From the NCBI GenBank assembly GCA_944363795.1, contig CALVVG010000004.1, forward strand, positions 1-44,376: 44,376 nt of DNA, written 5' to 3'. The DNA comes from an uncultured Bacilli bacterium. GTDB lineage: Bacteria > Bacillota_I > Bacilli_A > RF39 > UBA660. Position 1 is the stretch's first letter. Each line of letters begins with the position of its first letter. The notes beneath the pieces were generated by a model. It made no database searches and was not told the DNA's origin. It was given only the letters and a program-made list of their open reading frames with translations. A program made the position numbers and the translations under genes. Below are positions 68 through 41,475 of the stretch, in pieces.

Positions 68-100
68 TTGATTTTTTTTTTTTTTTTTTTTTTGTATAAT
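68..100 (+). promoter_or_regulatory. T-run promoter, candidate phase-variable switch (copy 1)
   Basis: A -35-like TTGATT (68-73) and a perfect TATAAT (95-100) are separated by 21 bases. Nearly all of these belong to an uninterrupted run of 22 T (72-93). The sister promoter at 40267-40296 has the same elements but 19 T and an 18-base spacer. Homopolymer runs inside promoter spacers change length by slipped-strand mispairing and switch transcription; an 18-base spacer is near optimal and 21 is poor. An alternative is that the T run is the tail of a terminator for an upstream gene, and both could be true. Confidence 0.65.
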
Positions 101-122
101 GATGGAAAATAGAGGTGTACCC

Positions 123-1403
123 ATGAAAAAAATAGTAGTAGGAATAATATTAATAATAACAATAATAGCAGTAGGAAGTTATCAATATTTAGCGAGTAAA
201 AATGAAGTAAGTACAAAAGAAAAACAGATAAAAAGTACAAATATGCTCACCATGATGTTAGAAACAGAAGCAGGAACAGGAGTTTATGAAGAAACAACAG
301 CCAGTGAGTGGCCGATTGATGGCTATGTATTTAATGAAACATTAAGTAAATGTGAAAATGATAGTGAACTTTCATGGGATAATAATTTAAAAAAAGTAAT
401 ATTTGCATCGACTAAAGCAGATAAGTGCTATATTTATTTTGATATAAAAAAAGATCCAACATTTGCTGATTATATTATAGATGAAGTATATAGTGTGGAT
501 GGAACAAATGGATTATATTATCATGATGGACAAGGAACATATACAAATGCCAATCAAGAAGCTGGAGATAATTCATATCGCTATAGTGGTGCGAATCCCA
601 ATAATTATGTATGCTTTGGGAGTGATGCTGCAACCTGTCCAAATGATAACTTATATAGAATAATAGGGTTATTTGATGATGATAAAGATGGAATATATAA
701 TATTAAATTAATCAAACATGATTATACAACAAGTGATATTCTAGGAACAGATGGTAGAGATTATGTAGGATTATTACAATCCTTTATAATTGATAATTAT
801 AAAGGAAATATGGATACTAATACTATAGCAACATATAGATGGAATAATGATGAAAGTATAAGTGAATGGGGATCAAATAATTGGACTACTAGCGAATTAA
901 ATATTATTAATTTAAATGACAACTACATAAACTATTTATATAGTATAAATAGCAAATGGGTAGAAATGATAGACAATACAACTACATGGTATTTAGGAGG
1001 AGTAGATGGTAGTGATTATACAGCCAAAGAATTTTATGAAGGAGAACGGAATAATTTAAGCTATGGTAATAATCCAATAACTTATAAAAACCAAATAGGT
1101 TTAATGTATCCTAGCGATTATGGATATGCTATTAGTTCAGAAGGCTGGAGTACTAGTTTGCATTATTATTATAATGAACCATTAATAGCAAATAATTGGA
1201 TGTTTATGGGATTGAATGAGTGGACAATAACCCATTATTTGTATGACAAAAGTTCCGTATATCGTTTTTATTATGACGGTGGTTTTAGTTATGATACAGC
1301 AGATAGCGTTGGGGTTGTAAGACCAACATTTTATCTTACTAGTAATGTTCTAATAATGGAAGGCAATGGTAGTTTAAATAATCCATATAGATTAAATTTA
1401 TAA
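123..1403 (+). CDS. Surface-anchored lectin-like variable protein, type I anchor
   Basis: This 426-residue protein is predicted to be membrane-anchored and extracellular. Residues 1-25 form one hydrophobic anchor after Lys-Lys. The following type I module carries a TMMLETEAGTG motif and two cysteines (SKCEN and DKCYIYFD). The shared C-terminal module follows: YYHDG, a Cys pair (NYVCFGSD and TCPNDN), an acidic DxDxDG calcium-type loop at residues 185-190, a GLMY..DYGYA segment, then a variable stretch before R-P-T-F-Y-L. The ATG at 123 is chosen because AGAGGTG lies just upstream; the ATG at 99 lies inside the promoter. The same architecture recurs at 40318, and the C-terminal half recurs at 8783, 10449 and 13422. 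I do not recognise a named family with certainty. The end resembles C-type-lectin-like ligand-binding tips, so adhesion or ligand binding is inferred. Confidence 0.75.
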   Translation: MKKIVVGIILIITIIAVGSYQYLASKNEVSTKEKQIKSTNMLTMMLETEAGTGVYEETTASEWPIDGYVFNETLSKCENDSELSWDNNLKKVIFASTKADKCYIYFDIKKDPTFADYIIDEVYSVDGTNGLYYHDGQGTYTNANQEAGDNSYRYSGANPNNYVCFGSDAATCPNDNLYRIIGLFDDDKDGIYNIKLIKHDYTTSDILGTDGRDYVGLLQSFIIDNYKGNMDTNTIATYRWNNDESISEWGSNNWTTSELNIINLNDNYINYLYSINSKWVEMIDNTTTWYLGGVDGSDYTAKEFYEGERNNLSYGNNPITYKNQIGLMYPSDYGYAISSEGWSTSLHYYYNEPLIANNWMFMGLNEWTITHYLYDKSSVYRFYYDGGFSYDTADSVGVVRPTFYLTSNVLIMEGNGSLNNPYRLNL

Positions 1404-8724: not shown

Positions 8725-9420
8725 AAGCCTTTTTAATATTTAAAATTAATGGTATAATTTTCAAAGAATAGGTGATTAAATTATGGTAAAAACAAAAAGA
8801 AATATTTTACTAGCAATAATCATAGTATTAATTCTTGTAGTAATAGCGTTATTGATAGGAAGATTCACATATTCATATTTAGCAGCTCAAACTAGTGAAG
8901 ATTTAAAAAATGAAGGAGAAACCACAGCAAGTGGAGATACAATAATTTTTAGTAAAGGTAATGATTTATCAATTAGTGCAACAACAGATAATTTTAATGC
9001 AACGAGTGGGAATTTAACTGATACTACTAATCCATCAGTAAGATTAGTGGCAAGTAGTAAAACAAATGAAGCAACAGCTACTTATTATGCTGGTATAAAA
9101 ATAAATAAAAATACTTATACTTATTCAGGTAGTGAAGCAGAACTAATATTGACGGTAAGAGATGAAACTGGGCAAATATTAACTACAAGTGCTGATGCCT
9201 TAGATTATGTAACGGTAAATGGAGTATCAGGTTTTGATATAACTGGAAAAACCGGAGCATTTAATATAGTTAAAGAACACTTAATTAGTACTAATTCATC
9301 AACTGCAGGAACAACACATACTTGGACATTTACATTGACATTTGTTAATTTAGATATAGATCAATCAATAAATGAAAATGCGGAACTAAGTATGGATGTA
9401 GTATTACAAAAAGACGAAAT
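8725..9420 (+). repeat. Direct repeat copy A (promoter plus type II anchor module)
   Basis: This stretch matches 10391-11086 at a constant offset of 1666 bases, with only scattered substitutions. It covers the extended -10 promoter, the leader and the first ~213 codons of the surface gene. Similarity stops abruptly where the C-terminal modules begin. Confidence 0.9.
8750..8758 (+). promoter_or_regulatory. Extended -10 promoter of surface gene at 8783
   Basis: TGG-TATAAT without a good -35. The same promoter region is duplicated before the gene at 10449, as TGT-TATAAT at 10416-10424. Confidence 0.6.
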
Positions 9421-10378
9421 AAAGTTGAGTTTGGCTGAACTATGTGATAAAAATTTTTTGACAGATTGTATTATTGAATGGTTATATACTGAAGATGGTA
9501 TAAATGATTTGTATTATCATGATGGAATGGGGGCTTATACAAATGCTTCTGAAGAAGCAGGTGATAATAGCTATCGCTATAGTGGAGCAGATCCAAATAA
9601 TTATGTTTGCTTTGGAAGTGATGAAGAAATATGTCCGGATAATAATCTTTATCGAATAATTGGATTATTTGATGATGATAAAGATGGGAAATATAAAGCT
9701 AAATTAATTAAAGCTGATTTAGCAAATAACGAATTATTAGGAGAAAATGGTAATTATAATACAAATGTATTTGTGGATACTGATTTAGAATATTATAAAG
9801 GAAAATTAAAAACGATAAATAGGTATTATTGGAATGATGACACTCAAAGTAATAACTGGAATGAAAGCGAATTAAATACGATTAATTTAAATGAAAATTA
9901 TATGAGTAGTATAAACAATAATTGGCAAAATTTAATAGATTATAGTAATTGGATAATTGGGGGTAATAGTATTGCAAATATATATGAAGTATCGGTTAAA
10001 AATGCATATAATTTTGAAATAATTACTCCAATAGATGCAACTAAATATTCTGATGAAATAGGACTAATGTATGTAAGTGATTATGGATATGCAGCCAGTC
10101 CTGAAAATTGGCAAACTATCTTATATGAATATGATAATGATTTAAATCGAAACAATAATTGGTTATATTTAGGCATTTTAGAATGGACAATTACAAGAAT
10201 AACTGATTATAATGATTATGTTTCTGGAATTAATTCTTCTGGTAGGGTTGGGTATGATTATATTGGTTATAGTGAAGCTGTTAGACCAGTATTTTATTTA
10301 AAAGAAAATGTAATATTAAATTCTGGAGATGGTACGATTAGTGATCCTTTTAGGATTATTTTGGCAAACAATGTTTAA
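8783..10378 (+). CDS. Surface-anchored lectin-like variable protein, type II anchor (copy 1)
   Basis: This is a 531-residue predicted extracellular protein. Residues 7-30 are a single membrane anchor. Residues 35-213 form a Ser/Thr/Asn-rich type II module with beta-strand character, almost identical to that of the next gene. The shared C-terminal module follows: YYHDG, Cys pair (NYVCFGSD and CPDNN), DDDKDG calcium-type loop, LMYVSDYGYAASPENW, and a variable Tyr/Gly/Ser stretch before AVRPVFYL. An extra Cys pair (LCDKNFLTDC) lies at the join, unlike the sister genes. GGTGAT stands before the ATG. The role is inferred to be ligand binding or adhesion at the cell surface. Confidence 0.75.
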   Translation: MVKTKRNILLAIIIVLILVVIALLIGRFTYSYLAAQTSEDLKNEGETTASGDTIIFSKGNDLSISATTDNFNATSGNLTDTTNPSVRLVASSKTNEATATYYAGIKINKNTYTYSGSEAELILTVRDETGQILTTSADALDYVTVNGVSGFDITGKTGAFNIVKEHLISTNSSTAGTTHTWTFTLTFVNLDIDQSINENAELSMDVVLQKDEIKLSLAELCDKNFLTDCIIEWLYTEDGINDLYYHDGMGAYTNASEEAGDNSYRYSGADPNNYVCFGSDEEICPDNNLYRIIGLFDDDKDGKYKAKLIKADLANNELLGENGNYNTNVFVDTDLEYYKGKLKTINRYYWNDDTQSNNWNESELNTINLNENYMSSINNNWQNLIDYSNWIIGGNSIANIYEVSVKNAYNFEIITPIDATKYSDEIGLMYVSDYGYAASPENWQTILYEYDNDLNRNNNWLYLGILEWTITRITDYNDYVSGINSSGRVGYDYIGYSEAVRPVFYLKENVILNSGDGTISDPFRIILANNV

Positions 10379-10390
10379 ATATTATAGAAT

Positions 10391-11086
10391 AAAGCTTTTT
10401 AATATTTAAAATTAATGTTATAATTATTAAAGAATAGGTGATTAAATTATGGCAAAAACAAAAAGAAATATTTTACTAGCGATAATCTTAGTATTGATTC
10501 TTGTAGTAATAGCGTTATTGATAGGAAGATTCACATATTCATATTTAGCAGCTCAAACTAGTGAAGATTTAAAAAATGAAGGAGAAACCACAGCAAGTGG
10601 AGATACAATAATTTTTAGTAAAGGTAATGATTTATCAATTAGTGCAACAACAGATAATTTTAATGCAACGAGTGGGAATTTAACTGATACTACTAATCCA
10701 TCAGTAAGATTAGTGGCAAGTAGTAAAACAAATGAAGCAACAGCTACTTATTATGCTGGTATAAAAATAAATAAAAATACTTATACTTATTCAGGTAGTG
10801 AAGCAGAACTAATATTGACGGTAAGAGATGAAACTGGACAAATATTAACTACAAGTGCTGATACTTTAGATTATGTAACGGTAAATGGAATATCAGGTTT
10901 TGATATAACTGGAAAAACTGGGGCATTCAATATAGTTAAAGAACACGTAATTAGTACTAATTCATCAACTACAGGAACAACACATACTTGGACATTTACA
11001 TTGACGTTTGTTAATTTAGATATAGATCAATCAATTAATGAAAATGCGGAATTAAGTATGGATGTAGTATTACAAAAAGATGAAAT
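10391..11086 (+). repeat. Direct repeat copy B (promoter plus type II anchor module)
   Basis: Partner of 8725-9420. The high identity at silent sites as well as coding sites suggests a recent tandem duplication or continuing gene conversion between the two surface genes. Confidence 0.9.
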
Positions 11087-11933
11087 TAATATGGGAAAAT
11101 TTACAGATTATATAATAAATAATATATATACACAAGATGGAGAAAATGGCTTATATTACCATGATGGTATAGGAACATATATTAATGCTGATCAAGAAGC
11201 AGGTGATAATTCATATCGCTATAGTGGTTCAAATCCAAATAACTATGTTTGTTTTGGAAGTGATGCAGCAACATGTCCAGCAAATAATTTGTATCGTATA
11301 ATCGGCTTATTTGACGATGATAATGATGGAGTGTATAATGTTAAATTGATAAAGTCAACTACTAATGGTCGAGCTATATGGGATGGAACATATGATGAGC
11401 ATAGCAATTTGTGGTCTGCAGATATAAAACCGGATATATATTATACTTTAAATACAGACTTTTGGAACACCTTAACATCACAATGGCAAAGTAAAATAGA
11501 TGCAACTTATCAGTGGAAAGTAGGAGGAATGACTTGGAATACTTCATATACAATTAAGCAATATTATGATGTGGAAGTAGGAACTAATCAAAATGGTTAT
11601 GTGGAAACAATGGCAATAGGATTAATGTATGTAAACGATTATGGTTATGCTTCTAGTCCTGAAAAATGGCTAGAGTCAATTGGTGATCCTAATGTTGAAA
11701 ATTATGGTGAAACTGATTGGTTATTTTCAGATAAATTAGAATGGCTATTAACCCGTACTTCTGATAGCTCAAATTTAGCATTTATTTTATACTCAGACAT
11801 GGGTGGTACAATTGATGGATATAACAGCGTTTATGCAGATTATGATATAAGACCAACGTTTTATTTAAAAAACGATGTTATGCTTAATGGTGGTACTGGT
11901 ACAGAAACTAATCCATATCGAATCAGTTTATAA
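10449..11933 (+). CDS. Surface-anchored lectin-like variable protein, type II anchor (copy 2)
   Basis: This 494-residue tandem paralogue of the preceding gene has the same membrane anchor and type II module (residues 1-213), joined to a different version of the shared C-terminal module. It contains YYHDG, Cys pair (NYVCFGSD and TCPANN), DDDNDG loop, VGGMTW, LMYVNDYGYASSPEKW and a variable stretch before DIRPTFYL. The C-terminal half is closer to the copies at 13422 and 40318 than to its own tandem neighbour, which points to module shuffling. It has its own extended -10 promoter. No terminator separates it from the liaF-like gene 20 bases downstream, so these are probably co-transcribed. Confidence 0.75.
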   Translation: MAKTKRNILLAIILVLILVVIALLIGRFTYSYLAAQTSEDLKNEGETTASGDTIIFSKGNDLSISATTDNFNATSGNLTDTTNPSVRLVASSKTNEATATYYAGIKINKNTYTYSGSEAELILTVRDETGQILTTSADTLDYVTVNGISGFDITGKTGAFNIVKEHVISTNSSTTGTTHTWTFTLTFVNLDIDQSINENAELSMDVVLQKDEINMGKFTDYIINNIYTQDGENGLYYHDGIGTYINADQEAGDNSYRYSGSNPNNYVCFGSDAATCPANNLYRIIGLFDDDNDGVYNVKLIKSTTNGRAIWDGTYDEHSNLWSADIKPDIYYTLNTDFWNTLTSQWQSKIDATYQWKVGGMTWNTSYTIKQYYDVEVGTNQNGYVETMAIGLMYVNDYGYASSPEKWLESIGDPNVENYGETDWLFSDKLEWLLTRTSDSSNLAFILYSDMGGTIDGYNSVYADYDIRPTFYLKNDVMLNGGTGTETNPYRISL

Positions 11934-13421: not shown

Positions 13422-14867
13422 ATGAAAACAAAAACACGAATAATATTATTAAGTATTATTGGAATATTAATAATTATAACTATTGTTTTAGGTGTAACTT
13501 ATGCATTTATGAGACCGGTGAAAGAATCAAGTTCAATAACTAGTGTAGATATTAAAAGTTGTGCTAAAATTACTCTAACTGATACGGGACAATCTATTAA
13601 TTTAAGTAATACATATCCGATGAGTAAAAATAAAGCACTACAAACAACTCCATACACTTTTACTGTAAGCTCTACATGTGAATCATATGTTGGATTTAAT
13701 TTATATTTAGCAACATTAAATACTAATACTATAGATGCCAGTAATATTCATTATATAGTAACTGAAAATAGTTCAAAAGAAATATTAGAAGAAGGTATTT
13801 TAGGAGATGCTACAAATGGATTAAGTGATTTTAATAGTGAAGAACAAGAACAATTAAATAATGGTATTAATGGAACATTTAGTCATGTTTATAAAATATA
13901 TGTAGGCAGTATTCCATATCAAGGAGAAGCAAGCTTTGATTTATATTTATATATAGATGGTGAAGTAACTGATAATACTACAATGGGTAAAACTTTTGTA
14001 GGTGGTGTTGCTGTTAAATCTATAGATAGAGAACCGGATCCAGAAATTACAACATTAGCAGATTATATAATAAATAATGTCTATACAACAGATGGCGAAA
14101 ATGGGTTATATTATCATGATGGAGTAGGAACATACACGAATGCTGATCAAGAAGCCGGAGATAATTCATATAGATATGCAGGGGCAGATCCTAATAATTA
14201 TGTCTGTTTTGGAAGCGATGCAGCAGCATGTCCAAATGATAACTTGTACCGAATCATAGGATTATTTGATGATGATCAAGATGGAACATATAATATTAAA
14301 TTAATAAAAAATACAAGTATTGGAAATTATGCTTGGGATAGTGAACGTGATAATACATGGGATGCAAGTACAAAACCAGATATAAGAAATACATTAAATA
14401 ATACATTTTTAGGAACAATAAATCCAACATGGCAAGATAAGATAGCAATACACATATGGAAAGTAGGAGGAATGGCTCAAGATAATTCAGCAACAGCAAA
14501 AGAATATTACAATACAGAAATAGGAAGTAGCTCAAGTAGTACAACAGATAGTATGAAAATAGGATTAATGTATGTAAGTGATTATGGATATGCAGCAGCA
14601 CCAAGTAATTGGACAACAGAATTATATAATTATGAAAGTGCAACAAGTACAAACTGGCTATATTTAGGTTCTCATGAATGGACAATTTCCCGCAGTACAG
14701 GCACTACGGTTTATGCCTTCTATGTGTACCTCACAGGGTATGTTTGCTACCGCGGCAACGACAATGTGACTTTTTCGTTTGCGGTGCGTCCGTCCTTCTA
14801 TCTAGAATCTAGTGTGAGCATTACTGGTGGAACAGGAACTTCGAGTGATCCTTACAAAATAGCTTAG
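13422..14867 (+). CDS. Surface-anchored lectin-like variable protein, type III anchor, GC-rich tip
   Basis: This is a 481-residue protein with a membrane anchor (residues 7-29) and a third kind of N-terminal module (residues 30-205), which carries CAKITLTDTG and an STCESY cysteine. The shared C-terminal module follows, with YYHDG, NYVCFGSD/ACPNDN, DDDQDG, VGGMAQ and LMYVSDYGYAAAPSNW. From codon CGC at 14691 onward the composition jumps from about one-third to about half G+C (56 of 110 bases in 14691-14800). This change falls exactly at the hypervariable tip before AVRPSFYL. The atypical block continues past the stop into two hairpins. The tip looks replaced or rewritten as a unit. Confidence 0.78.
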   Translation: MKTKTRIILLSIIGILIIITIVLGVTYAFMRPVKESSSITSVDIKSCAKITLTDTGQSINLSNTYPMSKNKALQTTPYTFTVSSTCESYVGFNLYLATLNTNTIDASNIHYIVTENSSKEILEEGILGDATNGLSDFNSEEQEQLNNGINGTFSHVYKIYVGSIPYQGEASFDLYLYIDGEVTDNTTMGKTFVGGVAVKSIDREPDPEITTLADYIINNVYTTDGENGLYYHDGVGTYTNADQEAGDNSYRYAGADPNNYVCFGSDAAACPNDNLYRIIGLFDDDQDGTYNIKLIKNTSIGNYAWDSERDNTWDASTKPDIRNTLNNTFLGTINPTWQDKIAIHIWKVGGMAQDNSATAKEYYNTEIGSSSSSTTDSMKIGLMYVSDYGYAAAPSNWTTELYNYESATSTNWLYLGSHEWTISRSTGTTVYAFYVYLTGYVCYRGNDNVTFSFAVRPSFYLESSVSITGGTGTSSDPYKIA

Positions 14868-14879
14868 GGCGGTACAAAT

Positions 14880-14913
14880 GCTCGTCTTCGCGCCTTTACG
14901 GTGCGAGGCGAGC
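14880..14913 (+). repeat. GC-rich hairpin 1
   Basis: The 14880-14894 arm pairs with 14900-14913 (14 bp, one bulged T, two G-T pairs) around a TTTAC loop, 13 bases after the surface gene stop. There is no T tail, so it is not a normal terminator. Confidence 0.75.
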
Positions 14914-14961
14914 GGGGATGTAATTTAGCTATTGATTAGTAAGGTTGAACGATAAAATTGA

Positions 14962-15021
14962 TGCAATAATTCTGCCACGGCTGCGCGAAAGTGCAGGAGT
15001 GGCAGTGGCCCATTATTGGCA
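14962..15021 (+). repeat. GC-rich hairpin 2 with GAAA tetraloop
   Basis: CTGCCAC (14972-14978) pairs with GTGGCAG (14999-15005), and CTGCGC (14981-14986) pairs with GTGCAG (14991-14996), around a GAAA loop. An outer AATAAT/ATTATT pairing adds length. There is no T tail. A hairpin with GAAA loop downstream of a variable region is what DGR targets carry in Bordetella phage. Confidence 0.75.
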
Positions 15022-15045
15022 TATAATATGGATAGTTGGAATAAT

Positions 15046-24103: not shown

Positions 24104-24131
24104 AATATCCATTATGGTATTGCTTTTTTTT
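24104..24131 (+). terminator. alaS terminator, overlapping a decayed T-run promoter
   Basis: AATATC (24104-24109) pairs with GGTATT (24116-24121, one G-T) and is followed by GC and eight T. The T run and the following leader match the T-run promoters of the type I surface genes, but the -10 is missing. Confidence 0.65.
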
Positions 24132-24155
24132 ATGGGGAAAATTAGAGGTATGCTC

Positions 24156-24734
24156 ATGAAAAAAATAATAATAATAGGAATAACTATATTAACAATAATA
24201 TCAATAAGTGGTTATAAATATTTAGTAAATAAAGAAGAAAAAATAAATATAATAAAACCTAAAGATAATTTAAAAAATACTAATATATTAACAATGATGT
24301 TAGAAAATGAATCTGGAGTATATGAAGAAACAAATGCTAGTGAGTGGCCGACTGATGGTTATGTATTTAATGAAGTTTTAAGTAAATGCGAAAATGGTGG
24401 AATACTAAGTTGGGATAATGATACTAAAAAAGTAGTAATACAGTCAAATAAATCTGATAAATGTTATGTTTATTTTGATAAAGTTAATATAATAAATTTT
24501 ACTATTGATGCAGTGCAATATAGTGCGGAAAAAGATATGACATGGAAAGATTGGTTATCTAGTAAATATAATGTTGATAATTATAAGCAACACTGTACAA
24601 CTGATTATATAACTGGGCATGGAATTGTAGCATATTCTGGTAAAAATTTGGTAAGTGTATCAGAAATAATTTTGGAAAATAATAATTATATACATGCTAC
24701 AGGAGTCTTTTTAGAACCATGTGGACTATTATAA
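24156..24734 (+). CDS. Type I anchor surface protein with a different C-terminal module
   Basis: This 192-residue protein shares the membrane anchor and type I module of the genes at 123 and 40318: TMMLENESG, NASEWPTDGYVFNE, SKCENGG and DKCYVYFD. After that it changes to a short module starting INFTIDAVQYSAEKDMTWKDW, with two Cys (KQHC and EPC), and lacks the YYHDG/lectin part. It resembles a short domain used repeatedly on gut Bacillota surface proteins, recalled and not verified. ATG 24156 follows AGAGG. The upstream leader is homologous to the T-run promoters but has lost TATAAT, so this copy may be silent or read through from alaS. Confidence 0.68.
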   Translation: MKKIIIIGITILTIISISGYKYLVNKEEKINIIKPKDNLKNTNILTMMLENESGVYEETNASEWPTDGYVFNEVLSKCENGGILSWDNDTKKVVIQSNKSDKCYVYFDKVNIINFTIDAVQYSAEKDMTWKDWLSSKYNVDNYKQHCTTDYITGHGIVAYSGKNLVSVSEIILENNNYIHATGVFLEPCGLL

Positions 24735-38255: not shown

Positions 38256-38310
38256 TTAAATCACCTTTATTATATTGTATGTTTTTTTTATAAAAAGTAA
38301 TACTAATAAT

Positions 38311-40248
38311 ATGAAAAAGACATTATATGGAATCATAATAGTAATATTTTTAATATTAGGAATTAAAGTGTTTTTGGTAAAAAGTAATTCTACATATTAT
38401 AAAGAAAAGTTAGAAGAAAGAACTTTAGTGTATATTAATGGAGGTAGTGCTCCTAGAGGTAGAATATTAGATACTAATGGTAAAGTTTTAGTAGATAACA
38501 TAGGGGTTAAAACAATATATTATAATAAAGTAAAAGATATAACATATTCTGAAGAAGTAAAAATTGCTCAAACTTTAGCTAGTATAATTACGATTAAAGA
38601 AGGCTCTTTAGATAATTTAAAAGATTATTGGTTAATTTTAAACAATAATGGCCAAAATTTAATTAAAAATGCAGAATATAAATTATTAGAAGAAAGAAAA
38701 ATAGATAAAGAGTATTTAGAAAATTTAAAAAAAGAAAGAATTACTTCTGAAATGTTAGCAAAATTTACTGAAATTGATAAGAAAGCTGCTTATATATATA
38801 GTTTAATGAATGAGGGTTATATTTATAATAAAAAAGAAATATTGAAAAATGTATCAGAAGAAGAATTTGCTAAAGTAATAGAAACAAATATACCAGGTAT
38901 AACTGGAGAATTATCATGGGAAAGAATATATTTGTACGAAGATACTTTAAAAAACATTTTTGGCAAGATTGGAAATATTCCTAAAGAAAAAAAAGAAGAA
39001 TATTTAAATATGGGTTATGAATTAACAGATACTGTCGGACTTAGTTATTTAGAATTAGAATATGAAGAATATTTAAAGGGAAAAAAGGCTAAATATTTAG
39101 TTAATAATGATAATACTTTAACTTTAGTTGAAGAAGAACAAAAAGGAAATGATTTAGTTTTATCCATTGATATTGATATACAATTAAAGGTAGAAGAAAT
39201 TATTAAAGAAAAAATATTATTAGGAGATAAGTATCCTAATACCGAATATTACAAAGATTCTTATGCTTTAATAAGTGATCCTAATACAGGTAGTATTATT
39301 GCCATTGTTGGTTTAAGAAGAAATGATGACGATACTTGGAGTGATATTTCATTAAATGTTATCAATAAATCATTTACTATAGGTTCAGCTGTCAAAGGGG
39401 CAACAATAGCAGTTGGTTATAAATATAATCTAATAGACATGAATAAATATATTACTGATAGTTGTGTAAAGCTTTATTTAGTTCCACAAAAATGCAGTTT
39501 TAAAAGCTTAGGTAAAATAAATGATTTAAAAGCATTAGCTATGTCTTCCAATTATTATCAATATTTAATTGCTATAGGCATTACAGGAAATACTTATAAA
39601 CCTAATATGAAATTAAATGCAACGGAAGAACATTTTAATATTTATCGTAATATGTTAGCTAATTTTGGGTTAGGTGTTAAAACGGGTATCGATTTACCAG
39701 GAGAAACTATAGGTATTATTGGTAGTACTATTGCTGATGATTTACTTTTGAATTTGGCTATTGGACAATACGATACATATACGCCAATTGAAATATTACA
39801 ATATATTAATTCGTTAGCAACTGGTAATCGGACTAAGCTTTCTTTAATGAAAGAAATAAAAAATGAAAATAACATTATTTTAAAACAAAATCCTGAAGTA
39901 TTAAATAAAATAGATTTAGAAGATGTATATCTAAATAGAATTAGAGACGGTTTAAAATTAGTTTTAAGTGAAGGAACAGGAAGAATATATGTTGATAAAA
40001 ATATCAATGCAGCGGGAAAAACTGGTACAAGTGAATCTTTTTATGATTCAGATAATGATGGTAAAGTAGACGTAGCTACAATTACCTCAACTTTTGCTGG
40101 TTATTTTCCTTTTGATAATCCTAAATATAGTGTCGTAGTAATTACTCCTAACATATCACACAACAATGGTACGTCTGATACTATGTATTATGGTGCTAGT
40201 AAAATAACTAAAGATATCACAAATTATTTAAATGAGTTAAAAAAATAA
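38311..40248 (+). CDS. Class B penicillin-binding protein (transpeptidase)
   Basis: This 645-residue membrane-anchored transpeptidase cross-links peptidoglycan outside the cell. It has an N-terminal membrane segment (residues 5-25) and a dimerisation/pedestal domain with APRGRILDTNG. The transpeptidase domain has active Ser359 and Lys362 (SAVK), Ser412-Ser413-Asn414 and Lys570-Thr571-Gly572. Together these are a complete beta-lactam-binding set. It is probably a PBP2/elongation or SpoVD-like enzyme; no rodA/spoVE partner is near. The ATG at 38311 has no ribosome site, and a weak -10 lies close, so a leaderless message is possible. Confidence 0.92.
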   Translation: MKKTLYGIIIVIFLILGIKVFLVKSNSTYYKEKLEERTLVYINGGSAPRGRILDTNGKVLVDNIGVKTIYYNKVKDITYSEEVKIAQTLASIITIKEGSLDNLKDYWLILNNNGQNLIKNAEYKLLEERKIDKEYLENLKKERITSEMLAKFTEIDKKAAYIYSLMNEGYIYNKKEILKNVSEEEFAKVIETNIPGITGELSWERIYLYEDTLKNIFGKIGNIPKEKKEEYLNMGYELTDTVGLSYLELEYEEYLKGKKAKYLVNNDNTLTLVEEEQKGNDLVLSIDIDIQLKVEEIIKEKILLGDKYPNTEYYKDSYALISDPNTGSIIAIVGLRRNDDDTWSDISLNVINKSFTIGSAVKGATIAVGYKYNLIDMNKYITDSCVKLYLVPQKCSFKSLGKINDLKALAMSSNYYQYLIAIGITGNTYKPNMKLNATEEHFNIYRNMLANFGLGVKTGIDLPGETIGIIGSTIADDLLLNLAIGQYDTYTPIEILQYINSLATGNRTKLSLMKEIKNENNIILKQNPEVLNKIDLEDVYLNRIRDGLKLVLSEGTGRIYVDKNINAAGKTGTSESFYDSDNDGKVDVATITSTFAGYFPFDNPKYSVVVITPNISHNNGTSDTMYYGASKITKDITNYLNELKK

Positions 40249-40266
40249 AAATTTCAATTCCAATAA

Positions 40267-40296
40267 TTGATTTTTTTTTTTTTTTTTTTGTATAAT
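40267..40296 (+). promoter_or_regulatory. T-run promoter, candidate phase-variable switch (copy 2)
   Basis: TTGATT (40267-40272) and TATAAT (40291-40296) are separated by 18 bases. The spacer lies inside a run of 19 T (40271-40289). A short stem TCAATT/AATTGA ends at the -35, so the run may also be the terminator tail of the upstream PBP gene. The spacer is three bases shorter than in copy 1. Confidence 0.68.
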
Positions 40297-40317: not shown

Positions 40318-41475
40318 ATGAAAAAAATAGTAGTAGGAATAATATTAATTATTACAATAATTGGAATAGGAGCTTATAAATATATATTTAATAATAGAGA
40401 AGTAATACTTGATAAATCAAAAGAGCAGATTAAGAGTAATGACATTTTAACAATGATGTTAGAAACAGAAGCAGGTACTGGAATATATGAAGAAACTACA
40501 GCTAATGATTGGCCATCGGAAGGATATGTATTTAATGCAGAACTTTCTAAATGTGAAAATGGTGGAATAGTCACATTTAATGAAGAGACAAAAAAAATAA
40601 ATATGCAAACAAATATAAGTGATAAATGTTACGTTTATTTTGATATAGCTAATCAAACATTTGCTAATTATATTATTGAAAATGTATATACTGAAGACGG
40701 AGCAAATGGACTATATTATCATGATGGATTAGGAACATATACAAATGCTGATCAAGAGGCGGGAGATAACTCATATAGATATTCAGGGGCAGATCCAAAT
40801 AATTATGTTTGTTTTGGTAGTGAAGAGACAACATGCTCAGAGGACAATCTATATCGAATAATAGGACTATTTGATGATGATAATGATGAAATATATAATC
40901 TTAAATTAATAAAATCAACAAGATATGGAAGTTATGAACGGGATTCTGGAAATAGTAATACATGGAACGAAACAGAAAAACCAGATATACATACAACATT
41001 AAATACAACATATTGGAATACATTAAGTAGTGAATGGCAAAACTTGATAGATGCAACATACCAATGGCAAGTTGGTGGCATGGCATGGAATGGTACAAAT
41101 ACAGCAAAACTATATTATAATGTTGAAATAAAAAATCAAACCGGATATATAGAAACGATGAAAGTGGGATTAATGTATGTAAGTGATTATGGATATGCAG
41201 CCAGTCCGGAAAATTGGCAGACAGCATTATCAAATTATTCTAATACAACTAATACCAATAATAACTGGGTGTATTTAGGTGCAAATGAATGGACTATTTC
41301 ACGCAGATCGGACCTTCCAAACCCTGTGTTCTCCATATCGGATTCAGGCTCAATCTACGCCGAAGCCCTACGTTTTTTTGTGTGTATATATCGCCCATCG
41401 TTCTATCTCAATTCTGAAGTAAAACTTGTTAGCGGATCAGGTACATCAACAGATCCATATAGAATTTCCATTTAA
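40318..41475 (+). CDS. Surface-anchored lectin-like variable protein, type I anchor, GC-rich tip
   Basis: This 385-residue protein shares the leader, membrane anchor and type I module of the gene at 123 (TMMLETEAGTG, SKCENGG, DKCYVYFD). The shared C-terminal module follows: YYHDG, NYVCFGSE/TCSEDN, DDDNDE (calcium-type loop with the final Gly changed to Glu), VGGMAW and LMYVSDYGYAASPENW. From CGC at 41302 the composition rises to about half G+C (49 of 100 bases in 41301-41400). The tip differs from all other copies until YRPSFYL, after which the gene is AT-rich again. AGAGGTG precedes the ATG. It lies behind a T-run promoter. Confidence 0.78.
   Translation: MKKIVVGIILIITIIGIGAYKYIFNNREVILDKSKEQIKSNDILTMMLETEAGTGIYEETTANDWPSEGYVFNAELSKCENGGIVTFNEETKKINMQTNISDKCYVYFDIANQTFANYIIENVYTEDGANGLYYHDGLGTYTNADQEAGDNSYRYSGADPNNYVCFGSEETTCSEDNLYRIIGLFDDDNDEIYNLKLIKSTRYGSYERDSGNSNTWNETEKPDIHTTLNTTYWNTLSSEWQNLIDATYQWQVGGMAWNGTNTAKLYYNVEIKNQTGYIETMKVGLMYVSDYGYAASPENWQTALSNYSNTTNTNNNWVYLGANEWTISRRSDLPNPVFSISDSGSIYAEALRFFVCIYRPSFYLNSEVKLVSGSGTSTDPYRISI

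What the first reader, a model, noticed from the sequence alone, without database searches (positions are those of the whole stretch)
68..100. 22-T run between -35 and -10: a likely phase-variable promoter
Seen: TTGATT, an uninterrupted run of 22 T, then TATAAT, giving a 21-base spacer before a surface protein gene. Known: homopolymer runs in promoter spacers mutate by slippage and switch surface genes ON and OFF in many pathogens, including vlp genes of Mycoplasma hyorhinis. Inference: the 21-base spacer is far from the 17-18 optimum, so this copy may be OFF in the sampled cell.
Basis: partly seen in the sequence, partly recalled or inferred. Interest (0 to 1): 0.75.

Follow-up and report, generated by a model that had tools for sequence, protein, structure and literature searches.

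The report
Slippery poly-T switches on surface-protein genes
An uncultured gut bacterium (class Bacilli) carries a run of about 20 identical bases inside the promoter of each of more than a dozen related surface-protein genes, some of which are also targets of a reverse-transcriptase mutation machine, so it probably flips these genes on and off at random as well as changing what they encode.

Summary
In detail: TTGATT (68-73), 22 T (72-93), G, TATAAT (95-100), 21-bp spacer, then a 426-aa membrane-anchored protein (123-1403). It is not isolated. A second copy sits in the window (T19, 40271-40289, 18-bp spacer). In the assembled genome all eleven sites matching T9+ next to TATAATG precede paralogues of this gene, all ten interior T>=16 loci lie upstream of family genes, and 17 of 84 contig ends are at such tracts. 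Tract length varies (clean spacers 17-21) while the flanks TTGA and GTATAATGGGGAAAATAGAGGTG are nearly fixed. Two other species of the genus have (AT)9-11 at the same promoter position before related proteins (27 sites, reversed control 0); orthologues in two more species differ T17 against T21. This strongly supports slipped-strand phase variation of the Mycoplasma vlp/vmm kind. Whether this copy is OFF cannot be told from the assembly. No reads or expression data were available.

The parts
68..73 (+). -35-like TTGATT
   Evidence: read directly; TTGA is conserved before the T tract at many paralogous sites
72..93 (+). T22 tract forming most of the -35/-10 spacer
   Evidence: chance 6e-6
95..100 (+). 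-10 TATAAT
   Evidence: GTATAATG conserved at eleven sites genome-wide, reversed control 0
111..117 (+). ribosome-binding-site-like AGAGGTG
   Evidence: conserved leader GGGGAAAATAGAGGTG across sites
123..1403 (+). 426-aa N-terminally membrane-anchored protein, DUF6273/C-lectin-like C-terminus
40253..40270 (+). hairpin after the stop of ORF 38275-40248; its 3' arm AATTGA supplies the -35; terminator stem
40271..40289 (+). second tract, T19, 18-bp spacer
40291..40296 (+). -10 TATAAT of second copy
40318..41475 (+). 385-aa paralogue of the first gene; GC-rich variable region about 41290-41420 (45% against 26%)
13422..14867 (+). 481-aa family protein, DGR variable protein without a T-tract promoter
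14685..14746 (+). DGR variable region: against the TR on contig C19, 13 of 25 TR adenines changed and 1 of 37 other bases
   Evidence: Fisher p 7e-6
14868..15039 (+). copy of the GC-rich stretch that lies between VR and TR at the C19 locus, here without a TR

Best explanation
The T22 tract is the spacer of a sigma-A type promoter of a multi-copy surface-protein family. Slipped-strand mispairing during replication adds or removes T residues, moving the -35 (TTGATT/TTGACT) relative to the -10 (TATAAT). Near 17-18 bp the promoter fires; at 20 or more it is weak or silent. Each family gene switches independently, so a clonal population shows a mosaic of surface proteins. At many sites the tract is also the U-tail of the preceding gene's intrinsic terminator, whose hairpin ends in TTGA. 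Several paralogues are in addition rewritten at template adenines by a diversity-generating retroelement, so expression switching and sequence diversification act on one family. Shown: anatomy, gene-family association, length differences among copies, (AT)n replacement in sister species, hairpins, adenine-specific VR/TR differences. Inferred: slippage rate, effect on transcription, surface location, ON or OFF state.
For: Second identical arrangement in the window. All eleven T9+/TATAATG sites in the genome precede family genes, reversed control 0. All ten interior T>=16 loci lie immediately upstream of family genes. Clean spacers 17, 18, 18, 19, 19, 19, 21 plus one of 27 here, and 17, 18 in G028. 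Same-genus G028 repeats it at more than ten family genes. Same-genus G014 and G021 have TTGA-(AT)9-11-AATT at 9 and 18 sites, control 0, before related membrane proteins, giving spacers 13/15/17. G020/G024 orthologues, 96.5% identical downstream, have T17 and T21 before GATATAATG. T tracts of 16 or more are far rarer in the 28 other same-genus genomes (0-12 against 37 and 35). Paralogues without a tract (8783, 10449) have ordinary promoters. Precedent: vlp poly-A and vmm dinucleotide promoter repeats (PMC10502178). DGR: Avd, RT, TR/VR.
Against: No reads, so no within-population length heterogeneity was seen. No transcript start or expression data. Short-read assemblies miscall long homopolymers, and this copy abuts a contig end. 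Some tract sites lack a recognisable -35 (C17, C19, C27). TTGATT matches only 4 of 6 consensus bases. Long T tracts can also simply be terminator tails. The finding's own gene shows no matched TR, so DGR action on it is not shown.
Confidence: 0.85

Rival explanations
1. The tract is only the U-tail of the upstream gene's intrinsic terminator, and the TATAAT downstream belongs to an ordinary promoter; length differences have no regulatory role.
For: At eleven or more sites a hairpin ends directly at the tract (7-bp stems with GNRA/UNCG-like loops at the best); the upstream gene is co-directional with its stop 14-70 nt before the tract at most sites where it is visible.
Against: Terminators need about 8 T, not 18-39. 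The -35 TTGA and -10 lie exactly at the two tract ends. (AT)n, useless as a U-tail, replaces it in G014/G021. Every T9+/TATAATG site belongs to this gene family. The window copy itself shows no convincing hairpin.
Confidence: 0.08
2. The tract acts as rigid or curved A-tract DNA tuning a constitutive promoter, without meaningful slippage.
For: Poly(dA:dT) has unusual geometry (general knowledge).
Against: (AT)n has different geometry yet occupies the same place in sister species; lengths vary among close copies and orthologues.
Confidence: 0.04
3. Assembly artefact: collapsed or invented homopolymers at contig ends.
For: T54, T61, T72 and T75 at contig ends and low-complexity tips are probably noise.
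Against: Interior tracts of T18-T20 with unique flanks occur in two separate MAGs and always at the same promoter position.
Confidence: 0.03

Closest known systems
Mycoplasma hyorhinis vlp promoters (poly-A tract; Citti and Wise 1995, via PMC10502178)
   Same: homopolymer in the promoter region of every member of a multigene surface-protein family, switching transcription by insertion or deletion in the tract
   Different: surface proteins are unrelated lipoproteins there; here TM-anchored DUF6273/C-lectin-like proteins, poly-T on the coding strand, overlapping terminators, scattered loci, TGA read as stop
Mycoplasma mycoides SC vmm promoter (dinucleotide repeat in the promoter spacer, PMC10502178)
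   Same: dinucleotide repeat between -35 and -10, like the (AT)9-11 promoters of G014/G021
   Different: other protein family; here two sister species use AT and two use T at the same place
Diversity-generating retroelements with C-type-lectin variable proteins (PMC8144416)
   Same: RT, Avd-like gene, TR with AAY codons, GC-rich VR at the C-terminal domain, adenine-specific TR/VR differences
   Different: variable-protein genes here also carry simple-repeat promoters; many paralogous targets; the TRs seen in this assembly are truncated

Membership tests
SSR (slipped-strand) phase-variable promoter | repeat tract located between -35 and -10 | tested here: met
SSR (slipped-strand) phase-variable promoter | tract longer than chance and tied to a gene class | tested here: met
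SSR (slipped-strand) phase-variable promoter | tract length differs between copies, strains or species with conserved flanks | tested here: met
   paralogues and species, not strains of one population
SSR (slipped-strand) phase-variable promoter | several lengths within one clonal population | not testable with these tools
   no reads available
SSR (slipped-strand) phase-variable promoter | expression follows tract length | not testable with these tools
   no expression data
Diversity-generating retroelement (for paralogues, not for the gene at 123-1403) | reverse transcriptase with Avd near a variable-protein gene | tested here: met
   C5 locus: RVT_1 E 2e-20, DivGenRetAVD E 3e-6 (below curated cutoff)
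Diversity-generating retroelement (for paralogues, not for the gene at 123-1403) | TR/VR pair differing at TR adenines | tested here: met
   window VR 13/25 A against 1/37 other; C19 9/25 against 2/37; C5 6 of 7 mismatches at A
Diversity-generating retroelement (gene at 123-1403 itself) | own VR with a matching TR | tested here: inconclusive
   no TR found in the fetched regions; the assembly is about 82% complete and most of it was not scanned for TRs
Mycoplasma vlp family | homologous lipoprotein with a cysteine lipobox | tested here: not met
   N-terminus is a membrane helix with no cysteine near it; no Pfam or NCBIfam family match

The most novel reading that the evidence does not exclude
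A two-layer diversification system in an uncultured gut lineage: one multigene family of C-lectin-like surface proteins is both switched ON/OFF by simple-repeat promoters, with the repeat (T or AT) swapped between sister species, and hypermutated by DGRs. The promoters arose by recruiting terminator hairpins and U-tracts as -35 and spacer.
Probability: 0.6. Interest if true: 0.75.

Novelty: new variant of a known kind. Interest (0 to 1): 0.62.

Why it matters
Phase-variable promoters are known mainly from cultured pathogens. Here the same trick serves a large gene family in an uncultured gut genus, evolved with two different repeat units, and meets DGR hypermutation in the same protein family. 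That would give one lineage both random expression choice and random binding-surface sequence, a combination I did not find in the papers searched. The terminator overlap suggests a simple route by which such promoters can arise behind any gene.

Tried and rejected
Pfam and NCBIfam name nothing in the 426-aa protein. A first TR search near all three RTs gave only poly-T noise; two of the RTs look retron-type (St85-like) and were set aside. Sequence search of the PDB gave no credible match. P0001 has no relative in phage records, so a prophage origin is not supported. TTGAAT-AT matches in G007 and G034 are not repeats and were discarded. Direct DGR action on gene 123-1403 was considered and is not supported by what was found.

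Full report
Observation. At 68-100 the window reads TTGATT, 22 T (72-93), G, TATAAT, followed by an AGAGGTG ribosome-binding-like sequence and an ATG at 123 opening a 426-aa frame. The spacer is 21 bp. A T22 run is not expected by chance in this 26% GC window: 300 Markov simulations never exceeded an A/T run of 18 and the expected number of such runs is 6e-6. The site lies 72 bases from the start of contig C4 of an 868-kb, 42-contig, 82%-complete genome; bases 1-67 are low-complexity and may be assembly noise.

A family of promoters. The window holds a second example, TTGA-T19-G-TATAAT at 40267-40296, before a paralogous gene at 40318. In the genome the first protein has 41 matching stretches. 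The pattern T9+, 1-3 bases, TATAATG occurs at eleven sites, all upstream of family genes, while the reversed control pattern occurs nowhere. The shared sequence is TTGA-Tn-GTATAATGGGGAAAATAGAGGTG. Every interior locus with T>=16 (ten loci) lies immediately upstream of a family gene, and 17 of 84 contig ends fall at such tracts, so the true number of switches is probably larger than assembled. Sites with both a TTGA -35 and a TATAAT -10 have spacers of 17, 18, 18, 19, 19, 19, 21 and, with an inserted GTGTGTGT, 27. These straddle the 17-18 bp optimum.

Relatives. In 59 genomes the tract-plus-TATAATG pattern is found in the own genome, in same-genus G028 and at one locus each in G020 and G024. 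G028, apparently the same assembly as the named MAG 'uncultured Bacilli bacterium BRZ_PG__bin9' since identical tract sites recur in both, shows T18-T30 before more than ten family genes. Two other same-genus genomes, G014 and G021, have TTGA-(AT)9-11-AATT at 9 and 18 sites with no control match (the same sites appear as G059/G060), before related membrane proteins, giving spacers of 13, 15 and 17 bp. A different repeat unit at the same promoter position argues for selection on repeat instability and against a role for poly-T as such. In G020 and G024 an orthologous surface-type protein of another family, 96.5% identical downstream, has T17 and T21 respectively; the upstream side of the G024 copy is at a contig end.

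Terminator overlap. At eleven or more sites a hairpin ends in TTGA or TTGAC and abuts the tract; the best have perfect 7-bp stems with loops GAAA, GTAA, TACG, TATG, TTCA or TGCA. The upstream gene usually runs in the same direction and stops 14-70 nt before the tract. The tract is therefore probably both the U-tail of a terminator and the spacer of the next promoter, with the hairpin arm supplying the -35. The copy at 68-100 shows no convincing hairpin, and its upstream sequence is unreliable.

The protein. An AlphaFold model from 18 relatives (mean pLDDT 86) has an N-terminal membrane helix, a beta-rich region and a C-terminal domain. The best viral matches include several DUF6273 proteins, and weak PDB matches include C-type lectin-like domains such as the Legionella Lcl C-terminus. 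The single strong PDB match, Thomasclavelia ramosa IgA peptidase, aligns at high rmsd (9.5 angstrom) over 316 columns at 18% identity and is not taken as evidence of a peptidase.

DGR connection. The genome has three reverse transcriptases. Two look retron-type. The third, at C5:31571-32647, lies with an Avd-like gene (DivGenRetAVD E 3e-6) and a MutS_I-like gene downstream of a family gene with a T29 promoter. At C19 a family gene with a T22 promoter is followed by a GC-rich stretch and a template repeat whose variable codons are AAY. Against this TR, the window's variable region at 14685 differs at 13 of 25 adenines and 1 of 37 other bases (p 7e-6); the C19 variable region at 9 of 25 and 2 of 37; the C6 one, also behind a T21 promoter, at 11 of 25 and 5 of 37. 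At C5 six of seven TR/VR mismatches in 31 bases are at adenines. RT relatives occur in most same-genus genomes. The gene at 123-1403 itself has a homologous C-terminal region but no matching TR was found, so DGR action on it is not claimed.

Mechanism and limits. The best reading is a slipped-strand phase-variable promoter of the vlp/vmm kind (PMC10502178), confidence 0.85, acting on a family that DGRs also diversify. Not shown: slippage within one population, dependence of transcription on length, surface exposure, and the ON or OFF state of this copy. Novelty lies in the combination, the terminator-linked architecture and the T/AT swap between sister species, not in the promoter principle.

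Noticed in passing
window 24114-24734: 206-aa family-type gene whose leader has only a T8 tract before ATGGGGAAAATTAGAGG; possibly a decayed or short-tract member.
   Followed up: no
window 8783-10378 and 10449-11933: Two tandem C-terminal relatives with near-identical ordinary promoters (TTTAATATTTAAAATTAATG then TATAAT) and no tract: natural non-switching controls.
   Followed up: partly
L193:7588-8547 and L195:3853-4794: Two retron_St85-like reverse transcriptases; the first lies next to an ATPase-like gene.
   Followed up: no
L122 (contig C23:7917-7945): T20 followed by GTGTGTGTG before TATAAT: mono- and dinucleotide repeats in one promoter spacer, 27 bp.
   Followed up: no
L194:1768-2106: 112-aa gene with a MutS_I-like domain between TR and Avd in the DGR locus.
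   Followed up: partly
L112 (contig C5:10704-10723): T20 tail upstream of a separate promoter of an 836-aa family gene: the tract lies outside the spacer here.
   Followed up: no
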